From Fimbriimonadaceae bacterium (lineage in GTDB: Bacteria > Armatimonadota > Fimbriimonadia > Fimbriimonadales > Fimbriimonadaceae): DNA of 48,294 nt. The stretch spans positions 1 to 48,294 of the forward strand of contig JAHBTB010000003.1 in assembly GCA_019638795.1 (NCBI GenBank). The letters run 5' to 3'. The notes under the pieces were generated by a model. It worked only from the letters and a program-made list of their open reading frames with translations, had not been told where the DNA came from and did not search any database. Shown piece by piece: positions 26,225 to 44,630 of this stretch; the first letter of the stretch is position 1, and the number at the start of each line of letters is the position of its first letter. Position numbers and translations under genes: made by a program.

Positions 26225-26353
26225 GGTGTCTTTCTTGGCTCCTCAGATTCACCCGGCCACTCTGATTAGCAAGTGGCTTGAGTCTCTTAGACTAAGGTAA
26301 CGCCGATTCTACCCGTCGCGTTGCACGGGCCGGGACGTTTTGAGACGGACGGG

Positions 26354-27007
26354 CTAGCAGGCTCGACGGCGGAGCCACCAGGCTCCCGCCAGCAGGGTCG
26401 CCGCCCAAAGGTGCGGTTCAGGGACGGGGCTCGTCCTGACGTCCACGTTCGTGATCGCCAAGTCTCCGCCGCTGACCAGCGAGAGACGGATTCCATGGAT
26501 GTCGACGGCGTCGCTCACGACGCCCAGATAGGGCGCTTCACCCAGCTCGGCCCCGTTGTTAAACCCGCTGGCGACAAACGTCGCCAGCACCGCGTCACCC
26601 TCGCCAAGGGCCTCGATCTTGGCGACATAGGCCCCCGGATCGGCGGCGCCGACGGAGGTCCCCAGCCCGCCGACCGGCTTGGACATGCGGAAGGTGAGGC
26701 TTGACGAGTTGCCCGCCGTCCACAACAGGGCGGCACCGGCGGCAAAGTCGCCATGCCAAGTGTCGCCTTCGTCCTGCCGTTCAACCGCCCCGGTGCCTGA
26801 AACCGTGCCCATGAGCGAAGACGGGCCGTAACTTCCCCGCACTTGCAGGCTGACGCCGTCGGGGTATCGGCTGCCGGGCCGCCCTGCCTCGGCGACGTCA
26901 TAGAGCCCGTTGGGAGCCAGTTCCGTCCTGGAGCCCATGAAGTAGACCGAGCCGTACGACAACGTGGCGGCGAGGGCAAAGACGACGGAGAATGCGGTTC
27001 GGTCCAT
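26354..27007 (-). CDS. PEP-CTERM surface protein, distant member of the array family
   Basis: A 217-residue protein. ATG 27007 opens a signal-like segment (MDRTAFSVVFALAATLSYGS). The end carries the sorting tag SPVPEP, a Trp-containing hydrophobic helix (LWAATLLAGAWWL) and RRRAC. The body shares the domain plan of the following genes: WHGDFAAGAALLWTAGNSSS, then FRMSKPVGGLGTSV, EALGEGDAVLATFVASG, LGVVSDAVDIHGIRL, DLAITNVDV. It has no cysteine before the PEP motif, unlike most of the array. An exceptionally strong hairpin lies directly upstream of its start. Confidence 0.82.
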   Translation of the reverse strand: MDRTAFSVVFALAATLSYGSVYFMGSRTELAPNGLYDVAEAGRPGSRYPDGVSLQVRGSYGPSSLMGTVSGTGAVERQDEGDTWHGDFAAGAALLWTAGNSSSLTFRMSKPVGGLGTSVGAADPGAYVAKIEALGEGDAVLATFVASGFNNGAELGEAPYLGVVSDAVDIHGIRLSLVSGGDLAITNVDVRTSPVPEPHLWAATLLAGAWWLRRRAC

Positions 27008-27015
27008 GGGTTCCC

Positions 27016-27049
27016 TTTCTGTGGCACCAGCAGGGCGATGCCACAGAAA
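27016..27049 (-). promoter_or_regulatory. Strong leader hairpin abutting the Shine-Dalgarno
   Basis: TTTCTGTGGCA (27016-27026) and TGCCACAGAAA (27039-27049) are an exact 11-base inverted repeat with a 12-base loop. On the mRNA the 3' arm runs straight into AGGGA, the likely Shine-Dalgarno, and the ATG follows 9 bases after the stem. Confidence 0.65.
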
Positions 27050-27150
27050 ATTGTCGGGAGCCTGACCACCAGAGTCATACGGGTAAATCACGTCTGAGGC
27101 CCTGGCAAGACCGCGGGTGCCCGCAATCCCGCACAAATACGGGGACAGTA

Positions 27151-27178
27151 AAGGGCCCTGGACAACTGTCCAGGGCCC
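27151..27178 (-). terminator. Hairpin terminator of the 27206-27847 gene
   Basis: GGGCCCTGGACA pairs exactly with TGTCCAGGGCCC (12 pairs, loop of two bases by sequence). On the minus strand it is followed by TTTACTG. Confidence 0.75.
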
Positions 27179-27205
27179 GGCTTTTCGGCGTTGGTCGGTC
27201 CGACC

Positions 27206-27847
27206 TTACTTGCGCTTGCGGCGGAGGAGAGCCAGGGCACCGAGGCCCAGGGCGCTCATTGTGGCCGGCTCGGGGACCGGCGAGCAGCAGGCGTAGCTGA
27301 CGCGGTTGATCGCGAAGTCACCAAGGTCGTCCATCACGATGGTGACGTGGTGGATGTCCCCGGCGTCGCTATGCACGCCGACAAACAGGGCGCTGTTGTC
27401 AGCATCTGGCGTCACGTTTCCGTTGACATGAAACGAACCCAGCACGTTGTCAAGCCCGTCATAGGCCGTCAGCGTCGCGCCAAACGCACCGTATTGGTTG
27501 CGGTCGACCTGGAAGCCCACGTCATTGCAAGTCTTCGCCCCAGTCAGGGTGACCCCCGTACGTCCCAAATAGTACAGCAATGCGTCGCCGGGGGCAAAGT
27601 CGCCATACCAACTGGCAGACTGGGTACGGCGTTCAAAGGTGCCCGGGGCAGAGATCAGGACGTCAAACGGGGTGCCGTGGGTCGAAATGGTGAACGACGA
27701 GGGGGCCGCCGTATTGTCCGGGCCAAGGTCGGCCCAGTCGATGTAGTCGGTCTCGGTGATTTGGGCGCGGCTCGTCAACAAGGTGACGCTACCGAAAGCT
27801 TGCGCGGCTAAGAGGCCGAGACAGGCCAAACTGATGATTCTCTTCAT
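27206..27847 (-). CDS. PEP-CTERM array member 1
   Basis: A 213-residue exported protein: signal MKRIISLACLGLLAAQAFG, then the array-family body. It opens with LLTSRAQITETDYIDWADLGP, continues through STHGTPFDV, YGDFAPGDALLYYLG, TLTGAKTCNDVGFQVDRN, AYDGLDNVLGSFHVNG and VGVHSDAGDIHHVTI, and ends FAINRVSYACCSP. The sorting tag is VPEPATMSALGLGALALLRR plus KRK. ATG 27847 follows GGAGAG. It is more diverged than the four tandem copies that follow. Its leader contains only a short GCAGA/TCTGC hairpin (27869-27882). A role in extracellular matrix or surface decoration is inferred from the tag. Confidence 0.88.
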   Translation of the reverse strand: MKRIISLACLGLLAAQAFGSVTLLTSRAQITETDYIDWADLGPDNTAAPSSFTISTHGTPFDVLISAPGTFERRTQSASWYGDFAPGDALLYYLGRTGVTLTGAKTCNDVGFQVDRNQYGAFGATLTAYDGLDNVLGSFHVNGNVTPDADNSALFVGVHSDAGDIHHVTIVMDDLGDFAINRVSYACCSPVPEPATMSALGLGALALLRRKRK

Positions 27848-28003
27848 TACTACTCTCCAATCCAAGACGCAGACAACTCTGCATCACCGCAAATCCTACA
27901 CAGTCATCTTGTCTGTAATCGACAGTAAACGCGGAACTCTCGTATGTCTACGGTCTCGTTCCGGTATTGTTGTCAGCAACACTCGTCTATCTCTTAAACC
28001 AAA

Positions 28004-28035
28004 CACGGCCCCCGGACTCTCGTCCGAGGGCTGTG
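28004..28035 (-). terminator. Hairpin terminator of the 28056-28688 gene
   Basis: CACGGCCCCCGGAC pairs with GTCCGAGGGCTGTG (one G-U, one mismatch) around TCTC. The minus strand continues TTTGGTTTA. Confidence 0.7.
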
Positions 28036-28055
28036 TCGAGCAGCCGTAGGCCGCC

Positions 28056-28688
28056 TTACTTACGCTTGCGGCGGAGGAGAGCCAAGGCACCGAGGCCCAA
28101 GGCGCTCATCGTGGCCGGCTCGGGGACCGGGCTGCAGCAGCTATACGACACGTGGTCGACGGCAAAGTCTGTGCCTGCATTGTCCGTGATCCACACCTTC
28201 ACCGAGTGGATGTCACCCGTGTCGCTGTGGACGCCGATGAACGGGGTGACCCCGTCGGCCCCGGAGACGCCGGCGACTGAGACCTCACCGAGCGACTGGC
28301 CAAGGCCGTCGAACGCCTCCATGTGGGCGGTGAAGGCACCGAAGAAGTTCGCGTCGACGTCCATCCCGACGTCGTTGCACGTCTTGGCCCCGGTCAAGGT
28401 CAACGCCTCGTCCCCATAGAGGAGCGGCTCGCCGGCCGGAAACCCGGTCGCCCATGGATTGCCCATGTCGGTCCGCTGCAGGTCCTGGCCTTGGACGTGG
28501 ACGTCAAACGGCGTGCCGTGGGTGCTCAGGACGAAGTCGTCGCCCGGAATGGTCCCCGTCGGGCCGAGGTCCTCCCAGCGCAGGTCGTCGGTGGCGGCAA
28601 TGTCGCCGCGGCTCGTGACCAAGGTCACTCCGGCAAAGGACTGGCTCGCGACGACGGCGAGACCAAGGATGGTCAAGGTCTTGTTCAT
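28056..28688 (-). CDS. PEP-CTERM tandem-array copy A
   Basis: First of four closely related tandem genes (210 residues). The signal is MNKTLTILGLAVVASQSFA. The body includes LVTSRGDIAATDDLRWEDLG, LSTHGTPFDVHVQGQ, MGNPWATGFPAGEPLLYGDE, TLTGAKTCNDVGMDVDANFF, EAFDGLGQSLGEVSVAG, VHSDTGDIHSVKVWI and FAVDHVSYSCCSP. The tag is VPEPATMSALGLGALALLRR plus KRK. Three mature cysteines are present: one in KTCNDVG and two directly before PVPEP. The MGNPWATGF segment links it to copy C rather than to copies B and D. The Shine-Dalgarno is GGAGAG. Confidence 0.9.
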   Translation of the reverse strand: MNKTLTILGLAVVASQSFAGVTLVTSRGDIAATDDLRWEDLGPTGTIPGDDFVLSTHGTPFDVHVQGQDLQRTDMGNPWATGFPAGEPLLYGDEALTLTGAKTCNDVGMDVDANFFGAFTAHMEAFDGLGQSLGEVSVAGVSGADGVTPFIGVHSDTGDIHSVKVWITDNAGTDFAVDHVSYSCCSPVPEPATMSALGLGALALLRRKRK

Positions 28689-28711
28689 TTTCTATCTCTC
28701 TCCAAGAATCA

Positions 28712-28728
28712 GCCACCGATCAAGTGGC
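28712..28728 (-). promoter_or_regulatory. Copy A leader hairpin
   Basis: GCCAC (28712-28716) pairs with GTGGC (28724-28728) around a 7-base loop, just upstream of GGAGAG. The same stem occurs with different loop bases before copies B, C and D. Confidence 0.55.
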
Positions 28729-28739
28729 ACGGGAAAAAG

Positions 28740-28830
28740 TGTACGGCCCCATGCGTGCCAATCAGTATCAAGCTTTTATAATCTAGCATTTGATTAACTC
28801 ATAGCCCGGCAACTAAACCAGTAGTCCGGT
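28740..28830 (-). promoter_or_regulatory. Copy A promoter region with TTGGCACG box and upstream repeats
   Basis: On the minus strand TTGGCACG (28754-28761) is followed by GCC-GTACACT. Here GG and GC are 10 bases apart, as in sigma-54 promoters, but the -12 element (GGGC) is not the usual TTGC. Upstream, the plus-strand strings AGTCCGGTAAAT (28823) and AGCCCGGCAACT (28804) resemble the element found before copies B-D, here 61 and 42 bases from the box instead of 18. The intervening sequence is AT-rich. Confidence 0.45.
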
Positions 28831-28840
28831 AAATGAAGGA

Positions 28841-28861
28841 CCCCTGGGCGACGCCCAGGGG
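28841..28861 (-). terminator. Hairpin terminator of copy B
   Basis: CCCCTGGGC pairs exactly with GCCCAGGGG around a GAC loop, 28 bases past the stop of the 28889-29524 gene. The minus strand continues TCCTTCATTT. Confidence 0.7.
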
Positions 28862-28888
28862 CCAACACTATTGCCAGGGCTTAAAGCC

Positions 28889-29524
28889 TTAGCTGTTCTT
28901 CTTGCGGCGGAGGAGGGCCAGGGCACCGAGGCCGAGGGCGCTCATCGTGGCCGGCTCGGGGACCGGGTTGCAGCAGCTGTACGACACGTGGTCGACGGCA
29001 AAGTCCGTGCCCCCGTTGTCGGTGATCCACACCTTGACCGAGTGGATGTCGCCCGCGTCGCTGTGGACGCCGATGAACGGGGTGACCCCGTCGGGTCCGG
29101 AGACACCGGCCACCGAAACGGAACCGAGCGACTGGCCAAGGCCGTTAAACGCCTCCATGTGGGCGGTGAACGCACCAAACGAATTGGCATCGACGTCCAT
29201 GCCCACGTCGTTGCAGGTCTTCGAGCCGGTCAGGGTCAGCGACTCAGCGGTGTACAGCAAGGGCTCACCGGCCGGATAGCCAGTCGCCCAAGTCGTGACT
29301 CCGTCATAACGGACCACGCTCTGGCCCTGGACGTGGACGTTGAACGGCGTGCCGTGGGTGCTCAGGACGAAGTCGTCACCAGGAGCCGTGAACTCGGGGC
29401 CGAGGTCCTCCCAGCGCAGGTCGTCGGTGGCGGCGATGTCACCGCGGCTCGTGATCAGGGTCACGCCAGCGAAAGCTTGGCTAGCAACGACGGCGAGGCC
29501 AAGAATGGTTAAGGTCTTCTTCAT
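28889..29524 (-). CDS. PEP-CTERM tandem-array copy B
   Basis: A 211-residue exported protein starting at ATG 29524 after GGAGAGAGATCGAA. Signal MKKTLTILGLAVVASQAFA. It differs from copies A and C in the patch YDGVTTWATGYPAGEPLLYT and in DLGPEFTAPGDDF, both shared with copy D. It keeps the three mature cysteines (KTCNDVG and YSCCNP), the tag VPEPATMSALGLGALALLRR, and ends KKNS instead of KRK. The leader and promoter, however, are closest to those of copy C, so the unit looks mosaic. Surface location inferred from the sorting tag. Confidence 0.9.
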   Translation of the reverse strand: MKKTLTILGLAVVASQAFAGVTLITSRGDIAATDDLRWEDLGPEFTAPGDDFVLSTHGTPFNVHVQGQSVVRYDGVTTWATGYPAGEPLLYTAESLTLTGSKTCNDVGMDVDANSFGAFTAHMEAFNGLGQSLGSVSVAGVSGPDGVTPFIGVHSDAGDIHSVKVWITDNGGTDFAVDHVSYSCCNPVPEPATMSALGLGALALLRRKKNS

Positions 29525-29546
29525 TTCGATCTCTCTCCAAGAAACC

Positions 29547-29564
29547 GCCACCAGGTCGGGTGGC
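29547..29564 (-). promoter_or_regulatory. Copy B leader hairpin
   Basis: GCCACC (29547-29552) pairs with GGTGGC (29559-29564) around AGGTCG, 23 bases upstream of ATG 29524 and directly before the TTTCTTGGAGAG Shine-Dalgarno segment. Confidence 0.6.
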
Positions 29565-29573
29565 ACGGCAGGT

Positions 29574-29628
29574 ACTTTACGGCACGACGGCATGCCAATG
29601 AACCTGTTAATCCATCAGTCAGGTAAAT
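29574..29628 (-). promoter_or_regulatory. Copy B promoter box pair
   Basis: On the minus strand TTTACCTGACT is followed after exactly 18 bases by TTGGCATG and then CCGTCGTGCCGTAAAGT. The same two boxes with the same 18-base spacing occur before copies C and D. The boxes do not match sigma-70 -35/-10 spacing. Confidence 0.5.
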
Positions 29629-29675
29629 GTCGAAGTGAAGTTAAGTACTTTGACTGGCCCAATGTCGAGAACAAT

Positions 29676-29699
29676 GGCCCCTGGACAGATCCAGGGGCC
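29676..29699 (-). terminator. Hairpin terminator of copy C
   Basis: GGCCCCTGGA pairs exactly with TCCAGGGGCC around CAGA. The minus strand continues ATTGTTCTCG. Confidence 0.75.
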
Positions 29700-29725
29700 C
29701 GTATGTTTTCTAGTGCCCTAAGGCC

Positions 29726-30370
29726 TTAGCGGCTCTTCTTTCTGCGGAGAAGGGCCAGGGCGCCGAGGCCCAAGGCGCTCATCGTGGCCGGCTCGGGGAC
29801 CGGGTTGCAGCAGCTATACGTGACGTGATCGACCGCGAAACCTGTTCCGGGACTCCCGGCGTCGTCAGTCGTCCAAACCTTGACCGAGTGGATGTCGCCT
29901 GCGTCGCTGTGGACGCCGATGAACGGCGTGACCCCGTCGAAACCGGAGACACCGGCGACCGAAACCGAACCGAGCGACTGGCCAAGGCCGTTAAACGCCT
30001 CCATGTGGGCCGTGAAATTGCCAAACGAATTGGCGTCGACGTCCATGCCCACGTCGTTGCAGGTCTTCGCGCCGGTCAGGGTCAGCGACTCGGTGCTGTA
30101 AAGCAAGGGCTCACCAGCCGGAAAGCCGGTCGCCCATGGATTGCCCATGTCATACCGGACCACGCTCTGGCCCTGGACGTGCACGTCGAACGGCGTGCCG
30201 TGGGTGCTCAGGACGAAGTCGTCACCGGGAACCGTGTAAGCTGGGCCGAGGTCTTCCCAGCGCAGGTCGTCGGTGGCGGCGATGTCACCGCGGCTCGTGA
30301 TCAGGGTCACGCCGGCGAAAGCTTGGCTAGCAACGACGGCGAGGCCAAGGATGGTTAAGGTCTTCTTCAT
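29726..30370 (-). CDS. PEP-CTERM tandem-array copy C
   Basis: A 214-residue exported protein from ATG 30370. Signal MKKTLTILGLAVVASQAFA. The MGNPWATGFPAGEPLLYSTE patch agrees with copy A, while the leader is almost identical to that of copy B. Near the C-terminus it has a private insertion (DDAGSPGTGFAVDH, three residues longer than its sisters) before VTYSCCNP. KTCNDVGMDVDANSFGNF and the VPEPATMSALGLGALALLRR tag are intact; it ends KKSR. The paralogue status is certain; its binding partner or structural role is unknown. Confidence 0.9.
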   Translation of the reverse strand: MKKTLTILGLAVVASQAFAGVTLITSRGDIAATDDLRWEDLGPAYTVPGDDFVLSTHGTPFDVHVQGQSVVRYDMGNPWATGFPAGEPLLYSTESLTLTGAKTCNDVGMDVDANSFGNFTAHMEAFNGLGQSLGSVSVAGVSGFDGVTPFIGVHSDAGDIHSVKVWTTDDAGSPGTGFAVDHVTYSCCNPVPEPATMSALGLGALALLRRKKSR

Positions 30371-30392
30371 TTCGATCTCTCTCCAAGAAACC

Positions 30393-30410
30393 GCCACCAA
30401 CTCAGGTGGC
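30393..30410 (-). promoter_or_regulatory. Copy C leader hairpin
   Basis: GCCACC (30393-30398) pairs with GGTGGC (30405-30410) around AACTCA, in the same place relative to the Shine-Dalgarno as in copy B. Confidence 0.6.
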
Positions 30411-30419
30411 ACGGCAGGT

Positions 30420-30474
30420 ACTTTACGGCACAACGGCATGCCAAAGGTGCCTTTGATTCAATAGTCCGGTAACT
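30420..30474 (-). promoter_or_regulatory. Copy C promoter box pair
   Basis: On the minus strand GTTACCGGACT, an 18-base gap, then TTGGCATG and CCGTTGTGCCGTAAAGT. This is the same layout as before copies B and D. Confidence 0.5.
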
Positions 30475-30529
30475 GTTTTAGTACATCACCGTAATTTGAC
30501 TAGACCAAATGTCCGTGACGAACACAAAG

Positions 30530-30559
30530 GCGGGCCCCTGGACATGTCCAAGGGCCCGC
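30530..30559 (-). terminator. Near-perfect 30-base palindromic terminator of copy D
   Basis: GCGGGCCCCTGGACA is followed directly by TGTCCAAGGGCCCGC, 14 of 15 pairs with no spare loop bases. The minus strand then reads CTTTGTGTT. It lies 22 bases past the stop of the 30582-31217 gene. Confidence 0.75.
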
Positions 30560-30581
30560 TTGTTTGTCCGCGCCTAGTGTC

Positions 30582-31217
30582 TTAGGCGTTCTTTTTGCGG
30601 CGAAGAAGGGCCAGGGCGCCGAGGCCGAGAGCACTCATCGTGGCCGGCTCAGGCACCGGGTTGCAGCAGCTGTAGGTCACGTGGTCGACGGCAAAGTCCG
30701 TGCCCCCGTTGTCGGTGATCCACACCTTGATCGCGTGGATGTCGCCGGCAAGGCTCCGCACGCCGATGAACGGGGTGACCCCGTCGGGTCCGGAGACACC
30801 GGCCACCGAAACGGAACCGAGAGACTGGCCAAGGCCATTGAACGCCTCCATGTGGGCGGTGAACGCGCCGAAGTGGTTCGCGTCGACGTCCATGCCGACG
30901 GCGTCGCAGGTCTTTGCCCCGGTCAGGGTCAGCGACTCGGCGGTGTATAGCAAGGGCTCACCGGCCGGATAGCCGGTCGCCCAACTCGTGACTCCGTCAT
31001 AACGGACCACGCTCTGGCCCTCGACGTGGACGTCGAACGGCGTGCCGTGAGTGCTCAGGACGAAGTCGTCACCAGGAGCCGTGAACTCCGGGCCGAGGTC
31101 TTCCCAGCGAAGGTCGTCGGTGGCCGCAATGTCACCACGGCTCGTGATCAGGGTGACGCTGGCGAAAGCCTGGCTCGCCACGACGGCGAGGCCAAGGATG
31201 GTTAAGGTCTTCTTCAT
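30582..31217 (-). CDS. PEP-CTERM tandem-array copy D
   Basis: A 211-residue exported protein from ATG 31217. Signal MKKTLTILGLAVVASQAFA. It shares YDGVTSWATGYPAGEPLLYT and DLGPEFTAPGDDF with copy B. Private changes include KTCDAVGMDVDANHF (others have KTCNDVG) and VRSLAGDIHAIKVWI (others have VHSDAGDIHSVKVWI). Cysteines and the sorting tag are conserved; it ends KKNA. The leader hairpin has the same stem but an unrelated loop, and the promoter boxes have drifted in flanking bases while keeping spacing. Confidence 0.9.
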   Translation of the reverse strand: MKKTLTILGLAVVASQAFASVTLITSRGDIAATDDLRWEDLGPEFTAPGDDFVLSTHGTPFDVHVEGQSVVRYDGVTSWATGYPAGEPLLYTAESLTLTGAKTCDAVGMDVDANHFGAFTAHMEAFNGLGQSLGSVSVAGVSGPDGVTPFIGVRSLAGDIHAIKVWITDNGGTDFAVDHVTYSCCNPVPEPATMSALGLGALALLRRKKNA

Positions 31218-31240
31218 TTCGATCTCTCTCCAAGAATGCC

Positions 31241-31258
31241 GCCACCTTAGTGGGTGGC
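31241..31258 (-). promoter_or_regulatory. Copy D leader hairpin
   Basis: GCCACC (31241-31246) pairs with GGTGGC (31253-31258) around TTAGTG. The flanks have diverged from copies B and C but the stem has not. Confidence 0.6.
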
Positions 31259-31267
31259 ACAGCGAGG

Positions 31268-31322
31268 AATGTACGACACTTATCCATGCCAATGGACCGC
31301 ATAGAACCGGAGTCCCGCATTT
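31268..31322 (-). promoter_or_regulatory. Copy D promoter box pair
   Basis: On the minus strand ATGCGGGACT, an 18-base gap, then TTGGCATG followed by GATAAGTGTCGTACATT. The sequence between boxes differs from copies B and C but its length is the same. Confidence 0.45.
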
Positions 31323-31438
31323 ATCTCGTCCAATTCTCGCATTTCCACTGACTCTTAGTGGCTTACAGATAGTTCACACATCCACTATGGTTTGTCATTT
31401 AGACAAAACATGAACTATTGTCACTGAAGCAATAACAA

Positions 31439-31469
31439 GGACGCCCCCGGAGAACTTCCGGAGGCGTCC
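31439..31469 (-). terminator. Hairpin terminator of the 31492-32142 gene
   Basis: GGACGCCCCCGGA pairs with TCCGGAGGCGTCC (12 of 13) around GAACT. The minus strand continues TTGTTATTGC, a fair U-rich tract. Confidence 0.8.
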
Positions 31470-31491
31470 GTCACTGAGGCCGCGAGAACGC

Positions 31492-32142
31492 TCAGGCCTT
31501 CTTCATTCGGCGGCGCAGAAGGCCAGCGACGCCCAGCGCGAGGGCCGACATCGAGGCGGGTTCGGGCACCGCGTTGCAACCGGCGAAGCTCACCCGGTCG
31601 ACGGCGAAGTCTTCGCCGCCGAGCACTTCGATTTTCACCGAAAGGATGTCGCTGATGTCGCTGTGAGCGCCAAGGAAAGCGAGCGACCCCGCTTGGTACT
31701 GGCTGTCACCGTTCACGTCAAATGAGCCGATCTGCTGGTCGAGGCCGTTGTAGACCGTGATGCGGCCAGTGAAAGCCCCGTAGGAATCGGCTTGGATGTC
31801 CATTCCGACGTCCTGGACAGTCTTGGCAAAGCGCATGACCATCGCTCCAGGCGTGTCCTGCGTCCAGAGCAGAGCCTCACCGCTGGCAAAGTTGCCGGCC
31901 CAACCGTTGTCTTGGTCCCGGCGCTCCATTGTCTGGCCGGGTCCGGTCACTTTGACGTTGAACACGTCACCGTGGGTGGCGATGTTCGCGGGGGAGTTGA
32001 CGACCGTGAATGAGGAGCCCATGTCGCTCCAGTCGATGTAGGCCTGCTCGGTGATGGCACCGCGGTTCATGATCTGCGTCACGGCAGCCATTGAAGTGCT
32101 GGCGGCGACGAGAAGGCCAGAGAGGGCAAGGATGCGTTTCAT
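31492..32142 (-). CDS. PEP-CTERM protein, second subfamily, member 1
   Basis: A 216-residue exported protein. ATG 32142 is chosen because it opens the signal (MKRILALSGLLVAASTSMA) after an AGGTGA Shine-Dalgarno; the longer open frame upstream is non-coding in character. The body is homologous to the tandem copies but forms a pair with the next gene: AITEQAYIDWSDMG, NIATHGDVFNVKVTGPGQTM, ASGEALLWTQDTPGAMVM, FAKTVQDVGMDIQADSYGAF, YNGLDQQIGSFDVNGD, and FAVDRVSFAGCNA. Cysteine content is reduced: Val replaces the Cys of KTCNDVG and only one Cys precedes VPEP. Tag VPEPASMSALALGVAGLLRR. Confidence 0.88.
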   Translation of the reverse strand: MKRILALSGLLVAASTSMAAVTQIMNRGAITEQAYIDWSDMGSSFTVVNSPANIATHGDVFNVKVTGPGQTMERRDQDNGWAGNFASGEALLWTQDTPGAMVMRFAKTVQDVGMDIQADSYGAFTGRITVYNGLDQQIGSFDVNGDSQYQAGSLAFLGAHSDISDILSVKIEVLGGEDFAVDRVSFAGCNAVPEPASMSALALGVAGLLRRRMKKA

Positions 32143-32151
32143 TTCTTGTTT

Positions 32152-32173
32152 CACCTGATATGGGGCCCAGGTG
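32152..32173 (-). promoter_or_regulatory. Leader hairpin that can mask the Shine-Dalgarno
   Basis: On the minus strand CACCTG pairs with CAGGTG; the second arm contains AGGTGA, the only plausible Shine-Dalgarno for ATG 32142. The array-copy hairpins leave that site free, whereas this one would hide it. Confidence 0.5.
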
Positions 32174-32206
32174 GGTCGACGCCCTCCTGCGCATGGACAA
32201 GGAAGG

Positions 32207-32222
32207 GCAGGTGTCGTGCCAA
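32207..32222 (-). promoter_or_regulatory. Sigma-54-like -24/-12 promoter
   Basis: The minus strand reads TTGGCACGACACCTGC, matching TGGCACG-R-NNN-TTGC except for one T-to-C change, with the required 10 bases between GG and GC. It lies about 65 bases upstream of ATG 32142. rpoN and its activators are not in the window. Confidence 0.5.
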
Positions 32223-32269
32223 CGCGCACGGTGACAAGAAATGCAAGGAGAACTGCGTGGGCAGAAGAG

Positions 32270-32297
32270 ACCTCCCCGGCCGCCGGGCCGGAGAGGT
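32270..32297 (-). terminator. Hairpin terminator of the 32312-32959 gene
   Basis: ACCTCCCCGGCC pairs with GGCCGGAGAGGT (11 of 12) around a 4-base loop, 15 bases past the stop. The U-tract is poor (CTCTTCTG on the minus strand). Confidence 0.6.
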
Positions 32298-32311
32298 TGT
32301 GGAGGCCAGGC

Positions 32312-32959
32312 TCAGGCCCGGCGGCGGCGGACGACGAGTCCCGCGACACCGAGGGCGAGGGCCGACATGGAAGCGGGTTCGGGAACCGCGTTGCAACCGG
32401 CGAAGCTCACCCGGTCGACGGCAAAGTCGTCGCCGCTGAGGACCTCGAGCTTCACCGAAAGAATGTCGCCAAGGTCGCTATGTGCTCCGACAAACGCCAG
32501 GGTGCCCGTGCCAAGTTGGTTGTCACCGTTCACATCGAACGAGCCGATCTGCTGGTCAAGTCCGTTGTAGACGGTGATACGGCCCGTGTAGGCGCCGAAG
32601 GCGTCGGCCTGGATGTCAAGACCGACATCTTGCACGGACTTCGCCAGGCGCAAGACCAACGCACCAGGGGTGTTCTGAGTCCAGAGCAGGCTGTCGCCCG
32701 GATTGAACTCACCAAACCAGCCGCTCCCTTCGTCGCGGCGCTCCATCGTCGCACCGGGGCCGGTGACCTGGACGCTGAAGACGTCGCCGTGCGTCATGAT
32801 GGCTGCGGGCGAATTGACCACGGTGAACTCGGGTCCAAGGTCGCTCCAATCGATGTAGGCCTGTTCGGTGATGTCACCGCGGCTCATGATTTGGGTGACC
32901 GCAGCCAGCGAAGTGCTCGCGGCCAAGAGAAGGCAAGATAGGGCAAGTACGCGTTTCAT
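32312..32959 (-). CDS. PEP-CTERM protein, second subfamily, member 2
   Basis: A 215-residue exported protein and close sister of the preceding gene: signal MKRVLALSCLLLAASTSLA, ITEQAYIDWSDLGPEFTVVN, MTHGDVFSVQVTGPGATM, NPGDSLLWTQNTPGALVL, LAKSVQDVGLDIQADAFGAY, YNGLDQQIGSFDVNGDN, and FAVDRVSFAGCNA. It has one cysteine before VPEPASMSALALGVAGLVVR, ending RRRRA. The region between ATG 32959 and the upstream stop at 33104 shows neither the TTGGCAYG box nor a clear leader hairpin, so its regulation may differ from that of its sister. Confidence 0.88.
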   Translation of the reverse strand: MKRVLALSCLLLAASTSLAAVTQIMSRGDITEQAYIDWSDLGPEFTVVNSPAAIMTHGDVFSVQVTGPGATMERRDEGSGWFGEFNPGDSLLWTQNTPGALVLRLAKSVQDVGLDIQADAFGAYTGRITVYNGLDQQIGSFDVNGDNQLGTGTLAFVGAHSDLGDILSVKLEVLSGDDFAVDRVSFAGCNAVPEPASMSALALGVAGLVVRRRRA

Positions 32960-33066
32960 AACTAGTTTTGGGTGGGGGTCGGACGCGACGATGGTCTCAC
33001 CGTCTGCGTAAGGGTCAGGTCAGGGGACCGGCGTGTCAGGACAGACCGGTCAAGAGACAAGGCTTT

Positions 33067-33088
33067 GGCCCCGCCCGAAGACGGGGCC
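33067..33088 (-). terminator. Terminator-like hairpin of the 33104-33754 gene
   Basis: GGCCCCG pairs with CGGGGCC around an 8-base loop, 16 bases past the stop. The minus strand continues AAAGCC, so no U-tract supports it. Confidence 0.45.
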
Positions 33089-33103
33089 TCATTGGAGAGA
33101 GCC

Positions 33104-33754
33104 TCAGCTCTTGCGCTTGCGGCGCAGAGCGAGGAGGCTGGCCGAACCAAGGACGACCATGGTGGCCGGCTCAGGCACGGGGGCGCAGCACTCGATTGAC
33201 ACATGGTCAAACGCAAAGTCCAAGGGAAGGGCGTCGTTGACCGGCGTGATGTTGACCCCGAAGGTGAGGATCGTGTTCCCGTCGTTGCGAACACCGACAA
33301 ACACCTTGTCGTCGTCAATGTCACCCGTCGAGAAGCTGCCGAGGAGGTTCCCCAGGCCGTCCCATGCCGCGACTTCAACGCGATACGGCGCGATGAAGTT
33401 GCGCTCAACGTCAAGACCGATCGCCTGGGCGGACTTCGCCAAGGTGAAGTACACGGGGCCGTCGGCGTTGGTCTTGAGCAGGTCTTCACCCGAGTCAAAG
33501 TTGCCGAACCAGCTCGAGTCTTGGACCAGGCGAGACATATCGGACGGGGCGTCGATGCGGACGTCGAAGACGTCGATACCCGTCGTCGTCCCGATCGATC
33601 CGCTCGGGACGACCGTGCTCTCAGGCCCAAACTGCCCAATGCCGAGGTCAGCGGTCGGCGCCATCTGGCTCCGGTCGGTCAGCAGGGTCAAGCTCGCAAA
33701 GGCCTGCGAGCCCAATACGGCCGTCATTGCGGCCACAAGAATGTACTTTTTCAT
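33104..33754 (-). CDS. PEP-CTERM protein, outlying member at array end
   Basis: A 216-residue exported protein from ATG 33754 after GGAGAGGAAC. Signal MKKYILVAAMTAVLGSQAFA. The body is recognisable as the same family but diverged: LLTDRSQMAPTADLGIGQFG, WFGNFDSGEDLLKTNADGPV, LAKSAQAIGLDVERNFIAPY, AAWDGLGNLLGSFSTGD, VGVRNDGNTILTFGVNI, and FAFDHVSIECCAP. It has the paired cysteines before VPEPATMVVLGSASLLAL but lacks the one in the KTCNDVG position. It is the 5'-most gene of the run. Confidence 0.87.
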   Translation of the reverse strand: MKKYILVAAMTAVLGSQAFASLTLLTDRSQMAPTADLGIGQFGPESTVVPSGSIGTTTGIDVFDVRIDAPSDMSRLVQDSSWFGNFDSGEDLLKTNADGPVYFTLAKSAQAIGLDVERNFIAPYRVEVAAWDGLGNLLGSFSTGDIDDDKVFVGVRNDGNTILTFGVNITPVNDALPLDFAFDHVSIECCAPVPEPATMVVLGSASLLALRRKRKS

Positions 33755-33978: not shown

Positions 33979-34428
33979 CTAGGGAGTACTGACAAACAGA
34001 CTGGGCCATTCTTCATCATCAGATAGACCCAGTTCTTCTGGTGCGGAGACCACCGCGATGAAAGTCGCTTCTAGCTCTTCGTCGTCCCTCATGATGCGGT
34101 CGTAACTCTCTCCACCGAACGGCGGGTACCGTTCACCACTCCGCTTGATGATCGCCCGTCCGGCCTTCACCTTGGCCTTCTCGACCACGTCGCTCAGCTC
34201 ATGGTCGCCCACAATGCGCAGCAGGGCGTCAGTGCGGTCGGGAAGGACGCACAGACAGAGGTAGTCGGCTCCCTTCCGCTCGGCTCGGAGCAGGGCCACG
34301 AAAAGCTCGTGACACTCCGGTCCGGTCAGTTCGCGCTTGTGCTTGAAGGCGACGTGATAGGTCACGCCTTCGGCGCGCCAATGCGGCCAGCGGCCCTGCC
34401 ACACCTCGAAGCCCTTCCACCGCGCCAT
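33979..34428 (-). CDS. RAYT/IS200-like transposase-fold protein lacking HUH histidines
   Basis: A 149-residue protein with the layout of REP-associated tyrosine transposases (Y1_Tnp fold): an N-terminal strand WRAEGVTYHVAFKHKRELTG, a central strand LCLCVLPDRTDALLRIV, helices (LSDVVEKAKVKAGRAIIKRS), and the end ESYDRIMRDDEELEATFIAV. In active members the central strand contains a metal-binding His-x-His (MPxHxHLL). Here the equivalent is Arg65-Thr-Asp67, so metal binding is not expected. A candidate nucleophile Tyr109 is retained in ESYDRI. It is likely a domesticated DNA-binding protein. No flanking inverted repeats mark it as a mobile unit. Confidence 0.7.
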   Translation of the reverse strand: MARWKGFEVWQGRWPHWRAEGVTYHVAFKHKRELTGPECHELFVALLRAERKGADYLCLCVLPDRTDALLRIVGDHELSDVVEKAKVKAGRAIIKRSGERYPPFGGESYDRIMRDDEELEATFIAVVSAPEELGLSDDEEWPSLFVSTP

Positions 34429-34523: not shown

Positions 34524-39227
<4,704 letters not shown>

Positions 39228-39275: not shown

Positions 39276-39295
39276 CAAAGACACCGGTGTCTTTG
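39276..39295 (-). promoter_or_regulatory. Perfect 20-bp palindrome in the rpoC leader
   Basis: CAAAGACACCGGTGTCTTTG is fully self-complementary, 48 bases upstream of the rpoC ATG and 29 bases downstream of the likely -10. It could be an operator or, as RNA, a compact hairpin. Confidence 0.6.
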
Positions 39296-39353: not shown

Positions 39354-39378
39354 GTGGCCCGCCTGGGTCGCGGGCCAC
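39354..39378 (-). terminator. Terminator hairpin after the dockerin-type gene
   Basis: GTGGCCCGC pairs exactly with GCGGGCCAC around a 7-base loop, 38 bases past the stop at 39417. The following minus-strand CCCTTGG is weakly U-rich. Confidence 0.55.
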
Positions 39379-39416: not shown

Positions 39417-40514
39417 TCAGTTGCCGTCCATACCGACGTTGCCGGACACAAGGTTGTAGTCGGCGATCGTCACTTGGCCGTCGCCGTTCATGTCCGCCTG
39501 GACCGGCAACCAGCCGTGGGGGTCGCCGCAATCTGTGTACCAAGCGTCCGTCGCGTCTGAGGCGCCGATTTGCGCATAGACAAAGTTGACCTCGTCCTGC
39601 GTCACGGAGTTGTCCCCGTCGATGTCGCCAAAGTACAGCACCCACGGGCGGTAGCTTGGCGACGACCCAGGCACAAAATGCACGCTGACCTTGCGACGTA
39701 GTGACCGCGGGGCCCGAAGGTAAATGTCATAGTCGCCTTCGGCCAGGCCGACCATCGGCACCGTCATCGCGCCGTAGACGAGCCCGTCTTGCCCCGAGTC
39801 GACGAGAAGGTCGACGCCCTGCATCACCTGGTAACTCACCGACTTCACAAACGACGGCACGTACATGCTCAGATAGTCAGTCGAAAGGATCTGCACCGTG
39901 CCGGGGACGATCCGCACCGCCGTGTCTCCCTGGGCGACCGACACGGTGAGGTTTCCTGACGACGGCGAGTGGTTCTCGGCCCGGGCCGAGTAGATCTCGT
40001 AGAAGGTCACCTGATACGTGCCCGACTTCCCTCCGGAGACGGGGGTCCAGTCCGACCCCGACGACACCAGCGACGACTTCTTGGCCAAGGTCGTCGAATG
40101 GTCTTGCGTGCCGACCCCGATCTGCCTTGATATCTCAAGGGCTTCGTCCGCAATGCCCGACGACGCGGACTCCACCGTCTCGGTGTAATTACTCAGCGTG
40201 GCCGAGACAAAGAGGTTGCGCGTGTAGTTGAAGACGACGCGGTCGGAACTGTTGATGGTCCGGCTGTCGACCACGGTGTAGCCCACCGTGACATGCCCGG
40301 AGCCCCCGACCTTGTTCTCCCCGCCCTGGTTGGCGAGGCGGCTGGCCGCCCCCGAAGCGCCGACGCGCGTCTGGTTGCCGTTTTCAATGGACAGGGACCA
40401 GGTCGGCGGCAGAGTGGACGTGTAGGTCTGGCCGTTGATCGTCGCGGAGACGAGCCCGTTGGCCGTTATTGTCGTGGTGTAGTAGCCAAGGGCGACCATC
40501 GTGGGCACAAGCAT
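39417..40514 (-). CDS. Dockerin-type protein encoded between rpoB and rpoC
   Basis: A 365-residue protein ending in a type I dockerin-like pair of calcium loops: DIDGDNSVTQDE and DMNGDGQVTIAD, each followed by a hydrophobic helix (VNFVYAQIG, YNLVSGNVG). Preceding them is a strand-rich body with many Ser/Thr/Asn (SSGIADEALEISRQIGVGTQ, SVAQGDTAVRIVPGTVQI) and a carbohydrate-binding-like segment (LAEGDYDIYLRAPRSLRRKV). ATG 40514 is the first possible start after an in-frame stop, yet no signal peptide is seen (MLVPTMVALGYYTTTITANG), which is odd for a dockerin protein. Its AGAGG and ATG are both buried in a nested hairpin. Function unknown. Confidence 0.8.
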   Translation of the reverse strand: MLVPTMVALGYYTTTITANGLVSATINGQTYTSTLPPTWSLSIENGNQTRVGASGAASRLANQGGENKVGGSGHVTVGYTVVDSRTINSSDRVVFNYTRNLFVSATLSNYTETVESASSGIADEALEISRQIGVGTQDHSTTLAKKSSLVSSGSDWTPVSGGKSGTYQVTFYEIYSARAENHSPSSGNLTVSVAQGDTAVRIVPGTVQILSTDYLSMYVPSFVKSVSYQVMQGVDLLVDSGQDGLVYGAMTVPMVGLAEGDYDIYLRAPRSLRRKVSVHFVPGSSPSYRPWVLYFGDIDGDNSVTQDEVNFVYAQIGASDATDAWYTDCGDPHGWLPVQADMNGDGQVTIADYNLVSGNVGMDGN

Positions 40515-40556
40515 GTGTGAATAACCTCTTGTGAGATTATGCTTATGCTTGTGCCC
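40503..40556 (-). promoter_or_regulatory. Nested hairpin sequestering Shine-Dalgarno and start codon
   Basis: The outer arms GGGCACAAGCAT (40503-40514) and ATGCTTGTGCCC (40545-40556) are an exact 12-base inverted repeat, and the start codon is the end of one arm. Inside, ATAACCTC (40521-40528) and GAGATTAT (40533-40540) give 8 more pairs in RNA (one G-U) with a 4-base loop; the AGAGG Shine-Dalgarno lies in this inner stem. Confidence 0.75.
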
Positions 40557-40613: not shown

Positions 40614-43600
40614 TCAGTTAAAAAAACCTACACTTCGCGCAAGGCGCACGTCGTCGCCACCGGTCAGCTCGTCAAGGTCCTTGAGCGAAAGCTCCTTGTT
40701 CGTCTTGTCTTCGACCGCCACCTTGAGGCAGAGCGACCGCAGCTCGTTGACGAGGATCTTGAAGGACTCGGGGATGCCCGGTTCCTGGATCGTCTCGCCC
40801 TTGACGATGGACTCATACGCCTTCACCCGGCCCATCACGTCGTCCGATTTGATCGTGAGCAGTTCCTGAAGGGTGTAGGCGGCCCCGTACGCCTCAAGCG
40901 CCCAGACCTCCATCTCACCGAACCGCTGGCCACCGAACTGGGCCTTACCACCGAGCGGCTGCTGGGTGACCAAGGAGTACGGGCCAATGGAGCGCGCGTG
41001 GATCTTTTCGTCGGCCAGGTGCTCCAGCTTGAGCATGTAGATGGTGCCGACCGTGATCGGGTTGGGGAGGACGTCGCCGGTCAAACCGTCGCGGACCAGG
41101 CTCTTGCAACTCTTCGGGTCGAGGCCGGCCCGGCGGAACACGTTGTGCTCCACGTTTTCAAGGATGGCCTTGTAGACATCTTCCGAAGCCTTGAACGGCG
41201 CACCGCTCGGCTGCACCTCTTCGGCCTGGAAGTTCTCCGCGTCGATCTGCATCAACTCTTCCATCGACCGGGTCGACGGCGCGGCCACGACGCGGCTGAC
41301 CCGCTCCAGATTGTCTTGGTCCAGTGTCCGCAGCTTGGCCTCGAACACCTTGAACATCTCTTCGAGCGAGAGGTCGGCCGCGAACTTCACGTTCAACTGA
41401 AGTTCGCTGTTGACGTACGCCTGCAGAGCCTTCGACCGCATATGCTCGGCCAACCGGGTGACCTCGCCAAGGATCTCATGCTCGGTCGCCCCCTCGAAGG
41501 CCGGGCAGACGTACCGGACGCCCAAGTGCTTGCCGACGTACCCGAGGTGGGTCTCCAAGATCTGGCCGATGTTCATCCGGCTCGGGACACCCAGCGGGTT
41601 CAGGATGATGTCGACAGGAGTGCCGTCCATCAGCATCGGCATGTCTTCGACAGGAAGGATCCGGCTGATGACGCCCTTGTTGCCGTGGCGCCCCGCCATC
41701 TTGTCGCCGACCATGATCTTGCGCTTTTGGGCGACATAGACTTGGACGGTCATGTTGGTGCCCGCCGGCAGTTCGTCGCCGGGGATCTGCAGGAGCGGCT
41801 CTTCCGTCCGGTCGCAGATCAAGCGGTCGCGTTTCTTCGACTCCTTATAGATGTGGTTGATCGACGGGCTGAGGTACTTGAACCGGCTGAACACCTTGAC
41901 GTCGATGACGGTCCCCTTTTCGCCGTGAGGCAGGGTGAGCGAGACGTCGCGGGTCTCTTCGGCCTTCTTACCGAAGATCGCGATGATGAGCCGCTCTTCG
42001 GCGGTCATCTCGGTCTGCCCCTTCGGGGCGACCTTGCCGACCAAGATGTCCTCGGGCCGGACTTCGGCGCCGACCCGGACGATGCCGTTCTCATCGAGGT
42101 CCTTGAGGGCCTCCTCGCCGACGTTCGGAATGTCGCGGGTGATCTCCTCAGGCCCCAGCTTCGTGTCGACCGCCTCGGTCTCATGGCGCTCGATGTGGAT
42201 CGAGGTGAAGACGTCGTCCTTGACCAGCCGCTCGCTGAGCAGGATGGCGTCTTCGTAGTTGTAGCCACCCCACGGCAAGAACGCGACCACAAGGTTTTTG
42301 CCCAGGGCCAAGCGGCCGTCGTCGCAGTTCGGGCCGTCCGCCAAAGCGTCACCGGTCAGCACGCGCTGACCCGGGAAGACGACCGGCCGGTGGGTGAAGC
42401 AGGTGGACTTGTTGCTCTGGAACATGTGGAGCAACGTGTAGGAGTCGTCGTTGCCCTCGTCGTTGGTGACGACGATTTTCTCGGACGTCACCGTCTTGAC
42501 GGTGCCCGGCCGTCGGGCGACGACGGCGGCCCCGCTGTCGACGGCGGCCCGGTCTTCGTGGCCCGTCCCGACCACCGGAGCGTCGGAGCGCAGGCACGGG
42601 ACAGCCTGCCGCTGCATGTTCGCGCCCATCAGGGCGCGGTTCGCGTCGTCGTTCTCCAAGAACGGGATCAGCGAGGTGGCCACCGAAATGATCTGCACAG
42701 GCGAGACGTCCATGACGTCCACCTTGCCCCGCGGGACGACCGGGTAACTCGCCCCGCCGAACTGCTTGTCGCCGCCCGGACAGCGCACGTTGACCTGCTC
42801 GGCGATGATACGCCCGTTGTCGTCCAGCTTTGTGTCGGCCGGGGCGACGCGCAGGTAGAAGTCCTCCTGGGCGGTCAGGTACTCGACCGCGTCTTGGACC
42901 ACCCCGTCGATGACGCGGCGGTACGGCGTCATGATGAAGCCGAACTCGTCGACGCGGCCATGGGTCGTCAACTGGCTGATCAAACCGATGTTCGGGCCTT
43001 CAGGCGTCTCGATCGGACAGATGCGGCCGTAGTGCGAGCGGTGGACGTCGCGGACTTCCAGCTTGGCGCTGGAGCGCTGCAGGCCGCCCGGGCCAAGGCT
43101 GGAGAGGCGCCGCTTGTTCGTCAGCTCGCTCAAGGGGTTGGTCTGGTCCATGAACGTGCTAAGCTGGTTTGAGCTGAAGAAGCTCTTGATGCTTGCGCTC
43201 ACGGGTTTGACCGAGAGGATGATGGACGGCAGGAGGTTGTCTTGGTCGGCGCTGGTCATGCGCTCGCGGGCGACCTTCTCCATGCGGACAAAGCCCAAGC
43301 GAAGTTGGCTCTGGAGCAACTCACCGACCGACCGCACGCGCTTGTTCCGCAGGTCGTCGATGTCGTCGTGCTCCGCCTCTTTGGCCAGGTACGGGCCCAT
43401 CGCGAGCATCGAGCCGGCGAGGTCGTCGCTCGTCAGGTTGCGGATGGTCAGGGGCACGTTGAGGCCCAACCGGTTGTTCATGTGCCGGCGGCCGACCTTG
43501 CCCATGTCGTACCGGCGGAGGTCGAAGAACAGGCTGAAGACCAGTTGGCGGGCCGCGTCTTCGTTCGCCGCCTCGCCCGGGCGCATCCGCTTGTAGATGT

Positions 43601-44630
43601 CCAAGATCGCCTCGCGTGTCGAGGTCGTCTTGTCGGCGGCGATGGTCGCCTCGATGTGCGGCGCGATGCGCAGAACGTCCAGCGACTCAAGTTCGAGTTC
43701 GGCGACCTTCTTGGCCGTCTCGGCGTCGATCCGCTCCATCCGGGCGACCAAGACTTTGCCGTCGGTGCCCTTGATCTCGGCCAACGGGCGGACACCTTCG
43801 ATGGCTTCGGCCGACGCCTTGCTCAGGGTCTCCTCGTCGCCAAAGTGCCACAGCATGTCGTCGTTTGTGCCCAGGGGCGACTCGACCATGGCTTCGGAGT
43901 CGAGTGCGGCCTGGTCAAGCCCGGCGAGGACGGCTTTGGTCAGGACCGTGCCTTTCTCGACGAGGATCTCGCCGTCTTCGTTGGCCAGTGGGTCGACAAG
44001 CTTCTTGTGCAGGCTCGCCCCGACCTTTTGGACTTGGCGGTCGCGACCCTTCTCGAAGCCGTGCAACGCCTTGATGAGCTGGGTGATCGGCAGCTTCTTA
44101 GTCTGGGAAATCTGGGTGTTGACGACCTGGTTGGCGTCGTTCTCGACCTCCAACCACGGGCCCTCCATCGGGATGATGCGGGCGCGGACGATCATCTGCA
44201 TCGACGTGTCGACGTCCTCTTCGAAGTAGAGGCCCGGCGACCGGCTCAGCTGGCTGACGATGACCCGCTCGCGGCCGTTGATGACAAAGGTGCCCTTGTC
44301 GGTCATCAACGGGAGGTCGCCCAAGTAGACCTCCGACTCGATCATCTCGCGGTCTTTGCCGCCAAAGCGCACCACCGCCTTGATCGGCGCCTCGAACGTC
44401 ATGTCCCGGTCGCGGCAGTCGTCGATGCCGTACTTCGGTTCGCCCAAGACAAACTCGGTGAACTCGATGTAGTTGTTCTGGGTGAAGTCCCAGATCGGCG
44501 AGAAGGTCTTAAAGAGTTCGGGAAGACCCTCTTCCAAAAACCATTTGTAGCTGTTAAGCTGGAGTTCAATAAGGTTGGGGACCTCGAGGAACCGACCGAT
44601 TCGCTTCGAGGATGGCTGAATGACTCTCAT
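40614..44630 (-). CDS. rpoB: RNA polymerase beta subunit
   Basis: Second catalytic subunit of RNA polymerase, 1338 residues. Signature blocks: [20 protein letters not shown] near the N-terminus, the rifampicin region [20 protein letters not shown] then [53 protein letters not shown], and [20 protein letters not shown] at the C-terminus. In the drug pocket, positions equivalent to E. coli Gln513 and His526 are Thr and Asn. It ends 99 bases before the dockerin-type gene with no clear terminator, so read-through into that gene is possible. rplJ and rplL, the usual upstream neighbours, are absent. A GGAG Shine-Dalgarno precedes ATG 44630. Confidence 0.99.
   Translation of the reverse strand: [1338 protein letters not shown]

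What the first reader, a model, noticed from the sequence alone, without database searches (positions are those of the whole stretch)
40503..40556. Nested hairpin hides the Shine-Dalgarno and AUG of the gene between rpoB and rpoC
An exact 12-base outer stem containing the start codon encloses an 8-pair inner stem containing AGAGG. Translation should be shut off unless the structure opens, as in RNA thermometers, protein-binding leaders or translational coupling from rpoB. Twenty pairs in 54 bases exactly at a start site is unlikely by chance.
Basis: seen in the sequence. Interest (0 to 1): 0.75.

Follow-up and report, generated by a model that had tools for sequence, protein, structure and literature searches.

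The report
Hairpin after rpoB, overlapping a truncated gene
The hairpin is real and strong, but it looks like the ordinary stem-loop that follows rpoB in this whole bacterial family, with a gene that has lost its front end inserted right behind it, rather than a purpose-built switch that controls translation of that gene.

Summary
The nested hairpin is real: 12 outer and 8 inner pairs in 54 nt, z −7.7, covering AAGAGG and the AUG of a 365-codon ORF between rpoB and rpoC. The regulatory reading is not supported. (1) The ORF and this leader are absent from the only same-genus genome, where rpoC follows rpoB after 83 nt. (2) The ORF lacks the signal peptide of its distant relatives, and alignment to them starts directly after the hairpin, so it looks 5'-truncated. 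(3) Among 78 other genomes of the family, nearly all have a ~13-bp hairpin after the rpoB stop. It lacks a U-tract when rpoC follows (median 2 U of 8) and has one when rpoC is displaced (median 5 of 8; p=5e-9). Arm sequences usually differ even within a genus. In all 45 adjacent cases the hairpin ends at least 20 nt before rpoC's start, so masking a start codon is not its usual job. (4) The stem stays closed to 75 °C in silico. Best reading: a U-less intercistronic hairpin at the 3' end of rpoB, probably protecting or processing rpoB mRNA or weakly attenuating rpoC, with the ORF's start overlapping one arm by accident of insertion. The mechanism is inferred; no RNA data exist here.

The parts
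40614..44630 (-). rpoB (1338 codons); stop codon at 40616-40614
   Evidence: ORF list; tblastn with relatives
40545..40556 (-). outer stem, 5' arm GGGCACAAGCAT, beginning 57 nt after the rpoB stop
   Evidence: sequence, fold
40533..40540 (-). inner stem, 5' arm ATAATCTC
   Evidence: fold
40521..40528 (-). inner stem, 3' arm GAGGTTAT; contains GAGG of the Shine-Dalgarno-like AAGAGG (40530-40525)
   Evidence: fold
40503..40514 (-). outer stem, 3' arm ATGCTTGTGCCC = first four codons of the inserted ORF; not followed by a U-tract (ACGATGGTCG)
   Evidence: sequence, fold, tail count
39417..40514 (-). 365-codon ORF with a C-terminal dockerin/EF-hand-like region (below Pfam cut-offs); lacks the N-terminal signal peptide of its relatives
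39355..39377 (-). second hairpin TGGCCCGC-N7-GCGGGCCA, about 40 nt after the ORF stop, U-poor
   Evidence: read from the sequence
39276..39295 (-). 20-bp perfect palindrome CAAAGACACCGGTGTCTTTG between ORF and rpoC
34524..39227 (-). rpoC; followed by a U-rich terminator hairpin (ACCGGGCCTGTTCCC... then TTTCATTTGG) that contrasts with the U-less rpoB hairpin

Best explanation
The feature is the 3' intercistronic hairpin of rpoB. In this family a stem of about 13 bp forms in the mRNA just after the rpoB stop. Where rpoC follows, the stem has no U-tract, so transcription is expected to read through. After an endonuclease cut downstream, the stem would then act as a 3' cap that protects rpoB mRNA from 3'-5' decay, or as a processing or weak pausing site, letting rpoB and rpoC mRNA levels differ. 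In this genome a sense-oriented gene that has lost its signal-peptide codons was inserted between the hairpin and rpoC, so its first in-frame AUG falls in the 3' arm. It is probably little translated from the read-through RNA. Shown here: the structure, its family-wide positional recurrence, the link between U-tract and rpoC position, absence of the ORF in the same genus, and the missing signal peptide. Inferred: read-through, protection or processing, and poor translation of the ORF.
For: Fold z -7.66. In 45 genomes with rpoC adjacent (22 genera), 34 have a stem that beats all 50 shuffles (20 of 22 genera have at least one genome at 1 of 50 or better), median 13 pairs, median 2 T in the next 8. 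In 33 genomes with rpoC displaced or an insert between, the median is 5 T; Mann-Whitney p=4.9e-9. Both sense inserts (own ORF; glycosyltransferase-like ORF in G008) sit behind U-less hairpins, while the antisense inserts in G104, G105, G106 and G108 sit behind U-tract hairpins (6, 5, 6 and 7 T of 8); the antisense insert in G025 is weaker (3 of 8). All 45 adjacent hairpins end at least 20 nt before rpoC's start. ORF relatives carry signal peptides that the own ORF lacks, with alignment starting at residues 6-7, just after the hairpin. The same-genus gap is 83 nt without the ORF. Literature analogue: E. coli intra-operon structures without U-tracts that protect the upstream gene, often overlapping the downstream coding sequence (PMC5927463).
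Against: The own hairpin starts 57 nt after the stop; among adjacent cases the median is 9, and only the g9 genomes G009 and G100 start later. It also has a 30-nt inner region carrying its own stem. Its flanks are not alignable to the same-genus gap beyond chance, so homology by descent is unproven and it could have come with the insert. U-poor strong hairpins after stop codons are common in this genome (10 of 52 short co-directional gaps) and also follow rpoB in several Actinobacteria, so the rpoB case is enriched rather than unique. No RNA data. The ORF is open, with ordinary GC3 (0.85) and weaker but coding-like codon usage (rank 42 of 234), so it may be a working gene.
Confidence: 0.5

Rival explanations
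1. It is a U-poor terminator or attenuator after rpoB: a fraction of polymerases stop there, with Rho or Nus factors helping, so rpoC and the ORF are made at a lower level or from their own promoter.
For: When rpoC is displaced the hairpin after rpoB is a canonical terminator. Convergent gene ends in this genome also carry strong hairpins with only 2-4 T. Low-U internal terminators that set gene ratios within operons are known in clostridia (PMC9045158).
Against: The tail ACGATGGTCG has 2 T in 8; adjacent-class hairpins as a group lack U while displaced ones have it (p=4.9e-9), as expected if termination is selected against when rpoC follows. This genome's rpoC itself ends in a U-rich terminator (6 T). 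The 30-nt inner region is unlike the mostly 3-6-nt loops of the family's terminators.
Confidence: 0.27
2. It is a translation-controlling leader of the inserted ORF: the hairpin holds GAGG and the AUG closed until a protein, an upstream ribosome or another signal opens it.
For: The pairing covers GAGG and AUG precisely; only 3 of 323 called starts have a comparable stem over the start codon.
Against: Leader and ORF absent from the same genus; the ORF looks 5'-truncated at the hairpin; AUG mostly paired up to 75 C in the model; hairpin too far from the rpoB stop for coupling; hairpins after rpoB exist family-wide without this ORF; no Rfam match above cut-off.
Confidence: 0.1
3. The ORF has its own promoter with a -10-like CATAAT (40541-40536) and its transcript starts near 40529, inside the inner loop, so the mRNA never contains the 5' arm and the hairpin matters only in read-through RNA.
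For: CATAAT lies at the right distance upstream of AAGAGG, and the stretch after rpoB is AT-rich (read).
Against: No sigma-70-type promoter found by the scan; no good -35 hexamer.
Confidence: 0.08
4. The palindrome is a DNA-level remnant of the event that inserted the ORF (element end or fold-back junction) and has no RNA function.
For: Alignment with ORF relatives starts directly after the hairpin; the position (57 nt after the stop) is unusual for the family.
Against: No second copy in the own genome; not alignable to any element found; hairpins occur after rpoB in nearly all relatives without any insert.
Confidence: 0.05

Closest known systems
Intercistronic protective hairpins of operons (malE-malF type; programmed differential decay in E. 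coli, PMC5927463)
   Same: Stable stem at the 3' end of an upstream gene inside an operon, no U-tract, in E. coli often overlapping the start of the downstream coding sequence.
   Different: No decay or 3'-end data here; the organism's nucleases are unknown; sequences turn over almost completely between species.
Internal low-U terminators that set gene ratios in operons (R. cellulolyticum ABC importers, PMC9045158)
   Same: Stem-loop directly after the first gene of an operon, some types with few U and an unpaired middle region.
   Different: Here the U-tract is specifically missing when the partner gene follows; termination efficiency untested.
RNA thermometers / SD-sequestering leaders
   Same: SD-like sequence and AUG paired in one hairpin.
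   Different: Very stable perfect outer stem; no melting predicted to 75 C; not conserved with the gene; gene appears truncated.
E. coli rplJL-rpoBC attenuation and processing (Barry et al. 1980, seen only as a reference in PMC5371410)
   Same: RNA structure and processing inside the RNA-polymerase operon.
   Different: I recall that site as lying upstream of rpoB (rplL-rpoB), not between rpoB and rpoC; the paper itself was not read.

Membership tests
Intercistronic 3' protective hairpin | Stable stem between co-directional genes, near the upstream stop | tested here: met
   z -7.66, 57 nt after rpoB stop, rpoC on the same strand downstream
Intercistronic 3' protective hairpin | No U-tract after the stem | tested here: met
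   2 T in the next 8
Intercistronic 3' protective hairpin | Upstream mRNA more stable than downstream; processed 3' end at the stem | not testable with these tools
   needs RNA-seq/Term-seq and decay rates
Intercistronic 3' protective hairpin | Recurs at the same place in relatives | tested here: met
   34 of 45 adjacent genomes beat all 50 shuffles; 20 of 22 genera. The own copy sits farther from the stop than most
Intrinsic (Rho-independent) terminator | GC-rich stem followed directly by a U-tract | tested here: not met
   tail ACGATGGTCG; scan reports none at this hairpin
RNA thermometer | SD/AUG stem that opens in the physiological temperature range | tested here: not met
   GAGG and AUG remain mostly paired from 20 to 75 C in the model
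RNA thermometer / regulatory leader | Structure conserved together with the regulated gene | tested here: not met
   gene and leader absent from the same-genus genome; no close homologue of the ORF in 60 relatives
Known Rfam RNA family | Match above the family's gathering score | tested here: not met
   best 21.3 bits against cut-off 80, E 0.18
Translational coupling element | Terminating upstream ribosome overlaps or opens the stem | tested here: not met
   57 nt between stop and stem; ribosome footprint length is established knowledge

The most novel reading that the evidence does not exclude
A clade-wide, sequence-independent hairpin between rpoB and rpoC, kept under selection for structure while its letters turn over, sets the ratio or lifetimes of the mRNAs for the beta and beta-prime subunits. 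It converts to a true terminator by gaining a U-tract whenever rpoC moves away or an antisense gene intervenes.
Probability: 0.3. Interest if true: 0.6.

Novelty: new member of a known kind. Interest (0 to 1): 0.35.

Why it matters
A hairpin over a start codon invites a riboswitch or thermometer story; comparing 79 genomes shows a simpler origin here. The by-product is a natural experiment: in one family the rpoB-rpoC pair has been kept, interrupted or split many times, and the presence of a U-tract after the rpoB hairpin tracks the fate of rpoC. This makes the role of U-less intra-operon hairpins, and how cells balance the two largest RNA-polymerase subunits, directly testable.

Tried and rejected
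Mobile repeat: no second copy of the 71-nt stretch in the own genome. The 16-mer arm matched 5 viral contigs; I judged that chance level for a collection of that size and did not follow it up. Ancestral homology of the hairpin to the same-genus gap: local alignment no better than shuffles (315 of 500 shuffles as good). Rfam: nothing above cut-off. Sigma-70 promoter: none found. Automatic covariation: sequences too diverged to align; a hand alignment of the G066/G067 stems anchored at their shared loop shows one two-sided compensatory change (C-G to A-T) and one one-sided change, but also pairs lost at the stem base. The genome-contig scan did not return the family; its loci served as an out-group control. 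The first hairpin caller (folding 70-nt windows) merged hairpins with their tails and miscounted U; it was replaced by the stem finder. A repeat search for duplications at the insert edges failed on a strand argument and was not repeated.

Full report
OBSERVATION. The RNA that matters is the minus strand. Folded there, 40503-40556 gives a perfect 12-pair outer stem and a perfect 8-pair inner stem, −27.6 kcal/mol, z −7.66; in a 201-nt context it is still the dominant feature (z −5.5). Searches folded the wrong strand and are not used.

SURROUNDINGS. rpoB ends at 40614, the stem begins 57 nt later, a 365-codon ORF starts in the 3' arm and ends at 39417, and rpoC starts at 39227. The window lies in a 2.7-Mb, 99%-complete assembly whose name is not given. 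One of the better non-family rpoB matches is from an Armatimonadota MAG (L140), which is only a hint of its phylum.

THE ORF IS A LATE AND APPARENTLY TRUNCATED ARRIVAL. In the only other genome of the genus the rpoB-rpoC gap is 83 nt and no ORF homologue was found. Distant relatives (29% and 22% identity) have longer frames with an N-terminal hydrophobic signal-like segment (judged by eye); the own ORF has none, and the best relative aligns from residues 6-7, immediately after the hairpin. A C-terminal dockerin/EF-hand-like region fits a secreted protein (below cut-offs). Codon usage is coding-like (rank 42 of 234 by score per codon; GC3 0.85), so the truncation is recent, or the protein works in another place, or the true start differs; this is not settled.

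FAMILY COMPARISON. I collected the sequence after rpoB from 78 other genomes of the family and searched the first 130 nt for the best stem against 50 dinucleotide shuffles. With rpoC within 260 nt (45 genomes, 22 genera), 34 beat all shuffles, the median stem has 13 pairs and starts 9 nt after the stop, and the median number of T in the 8 nt after the stem is 2. With an insert between (9) or rpoC elsewhere (24), the stems are similar but the median is 5 T. The difference is strong (Mann-Whitney p=4.9e-9), although genomes are not independent and some 'split' cases may be contig breaks. In genus g30 the adjacent genome G107 has a U-less hairpin, while G104, G105, G106 and G108, interrupted by an antisense gene, have U-tract terminators. 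The two sense inserts (own genome, G008) follow U-less hairpins. So the U-tract follows whether rpoC must be transcribed through. Arm sequences differ widely even within most genera (about 40-50% identity, the level I expect for unrelated DNA under this gapped alignment), with both members usually keeping a strong stem.

WHAT THE HAIRPIN DOES NOT DO. In all 45 adjacent genomes it ends 20 nt or more before rpoC's start, so it does not mask a start codon in the family. In the own genome it would mask the ORF's start, but only because the ORF begins there. It does not open up to 75 °C in the model, and it is too far from the rpoB stop for coupling.

BACKGROUND AND CONTROLS. In 388 kb of this genome, 13 of 52 co-directional gaps of 60-150 nt carry a stem of score 12 or more, 10 of them U-poor, against 0 of 18 short divergent gaps. 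The rpoB-rpoC gaps of the family reach 30 of 45 (Fisher p=4e-5; the control is one genome, so this is indicative only). Outside the family, 11 of 43 measurable rpoB-rpoC gaps have such a stem, mainly Actinobacteria such as Streptomyces, Micromonospora and Janibacter, and again mostly without U. Other families of the same order mostly lack it. I found no paper in the held library on an rpoB-rpoC hairpin, which does not show that none exists.

MECHANISM. The pattern fits hairpins that protect or delimit the upstream mRNA inside operons: in E. coli these lack U-tracts and 17 of 26 sit inside the downstream coding sequence (PMC5927463). The main rival is partial termination (PMC9045158). Both are inference without RNA data. 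The weak point is that the own hairpin is farther from the stop than most, has a large inner region, and cannot be aligned to its nearest relative's hairpin, so it may have arrived with the insert.

VERDICT. Observation confirmed; start-site switch not supported; most likely a new member of a known kind, U-less intercistronic hairpins, with an interesting family-wide pattern behind it.

Noticed in passing
rpoB-rpoC junction in family f1: The rpoB-rpoC pair, usually conserved, has been interrupted or split many times in this family (24 split or far, 9 interrupted, among 78 other genomes; a few may be contig breaks).
   Followed up: partly
window 26353-33754 (-): Array of about eight similar-sized (roughly 190-220 codon) tandem genes, most followed by a strong hairpin; the last one is a PEP-CTERM protein. 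Whether all are paralogues was not tested.
   Followed up: no
window 33979-34428 (-): Small gene directly after rpoC with a weak, below-cut-off match to REP-associated tyrosine transposase (NF047646, E 1e-4).
   Followed up: no
window 39276-39295: 20-bp perfect palindrome CAAAGACACCGGTGTCTTTG upstream of rpoC, preceded by TGCTAAGAT, an extended -10-like motif; possible rpoC promoter and operator.
   Followed up: no
L165, L174, L181, L183, L184, L186, L188, L213, L217: Actinobacteria (Streptomyces, Micromonospora, Janibacter, Tersicoccus) also carry long U-less hairpins in the rpoB-rpoC gap.
   Followed up: partly
L025/L051 and L138 (G012): Longer relatives of the inserted ORF with signal-like N-termini and the same C-terminal calcium-binding-like region lie elsewhere in another genus.
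   Followed up: partly
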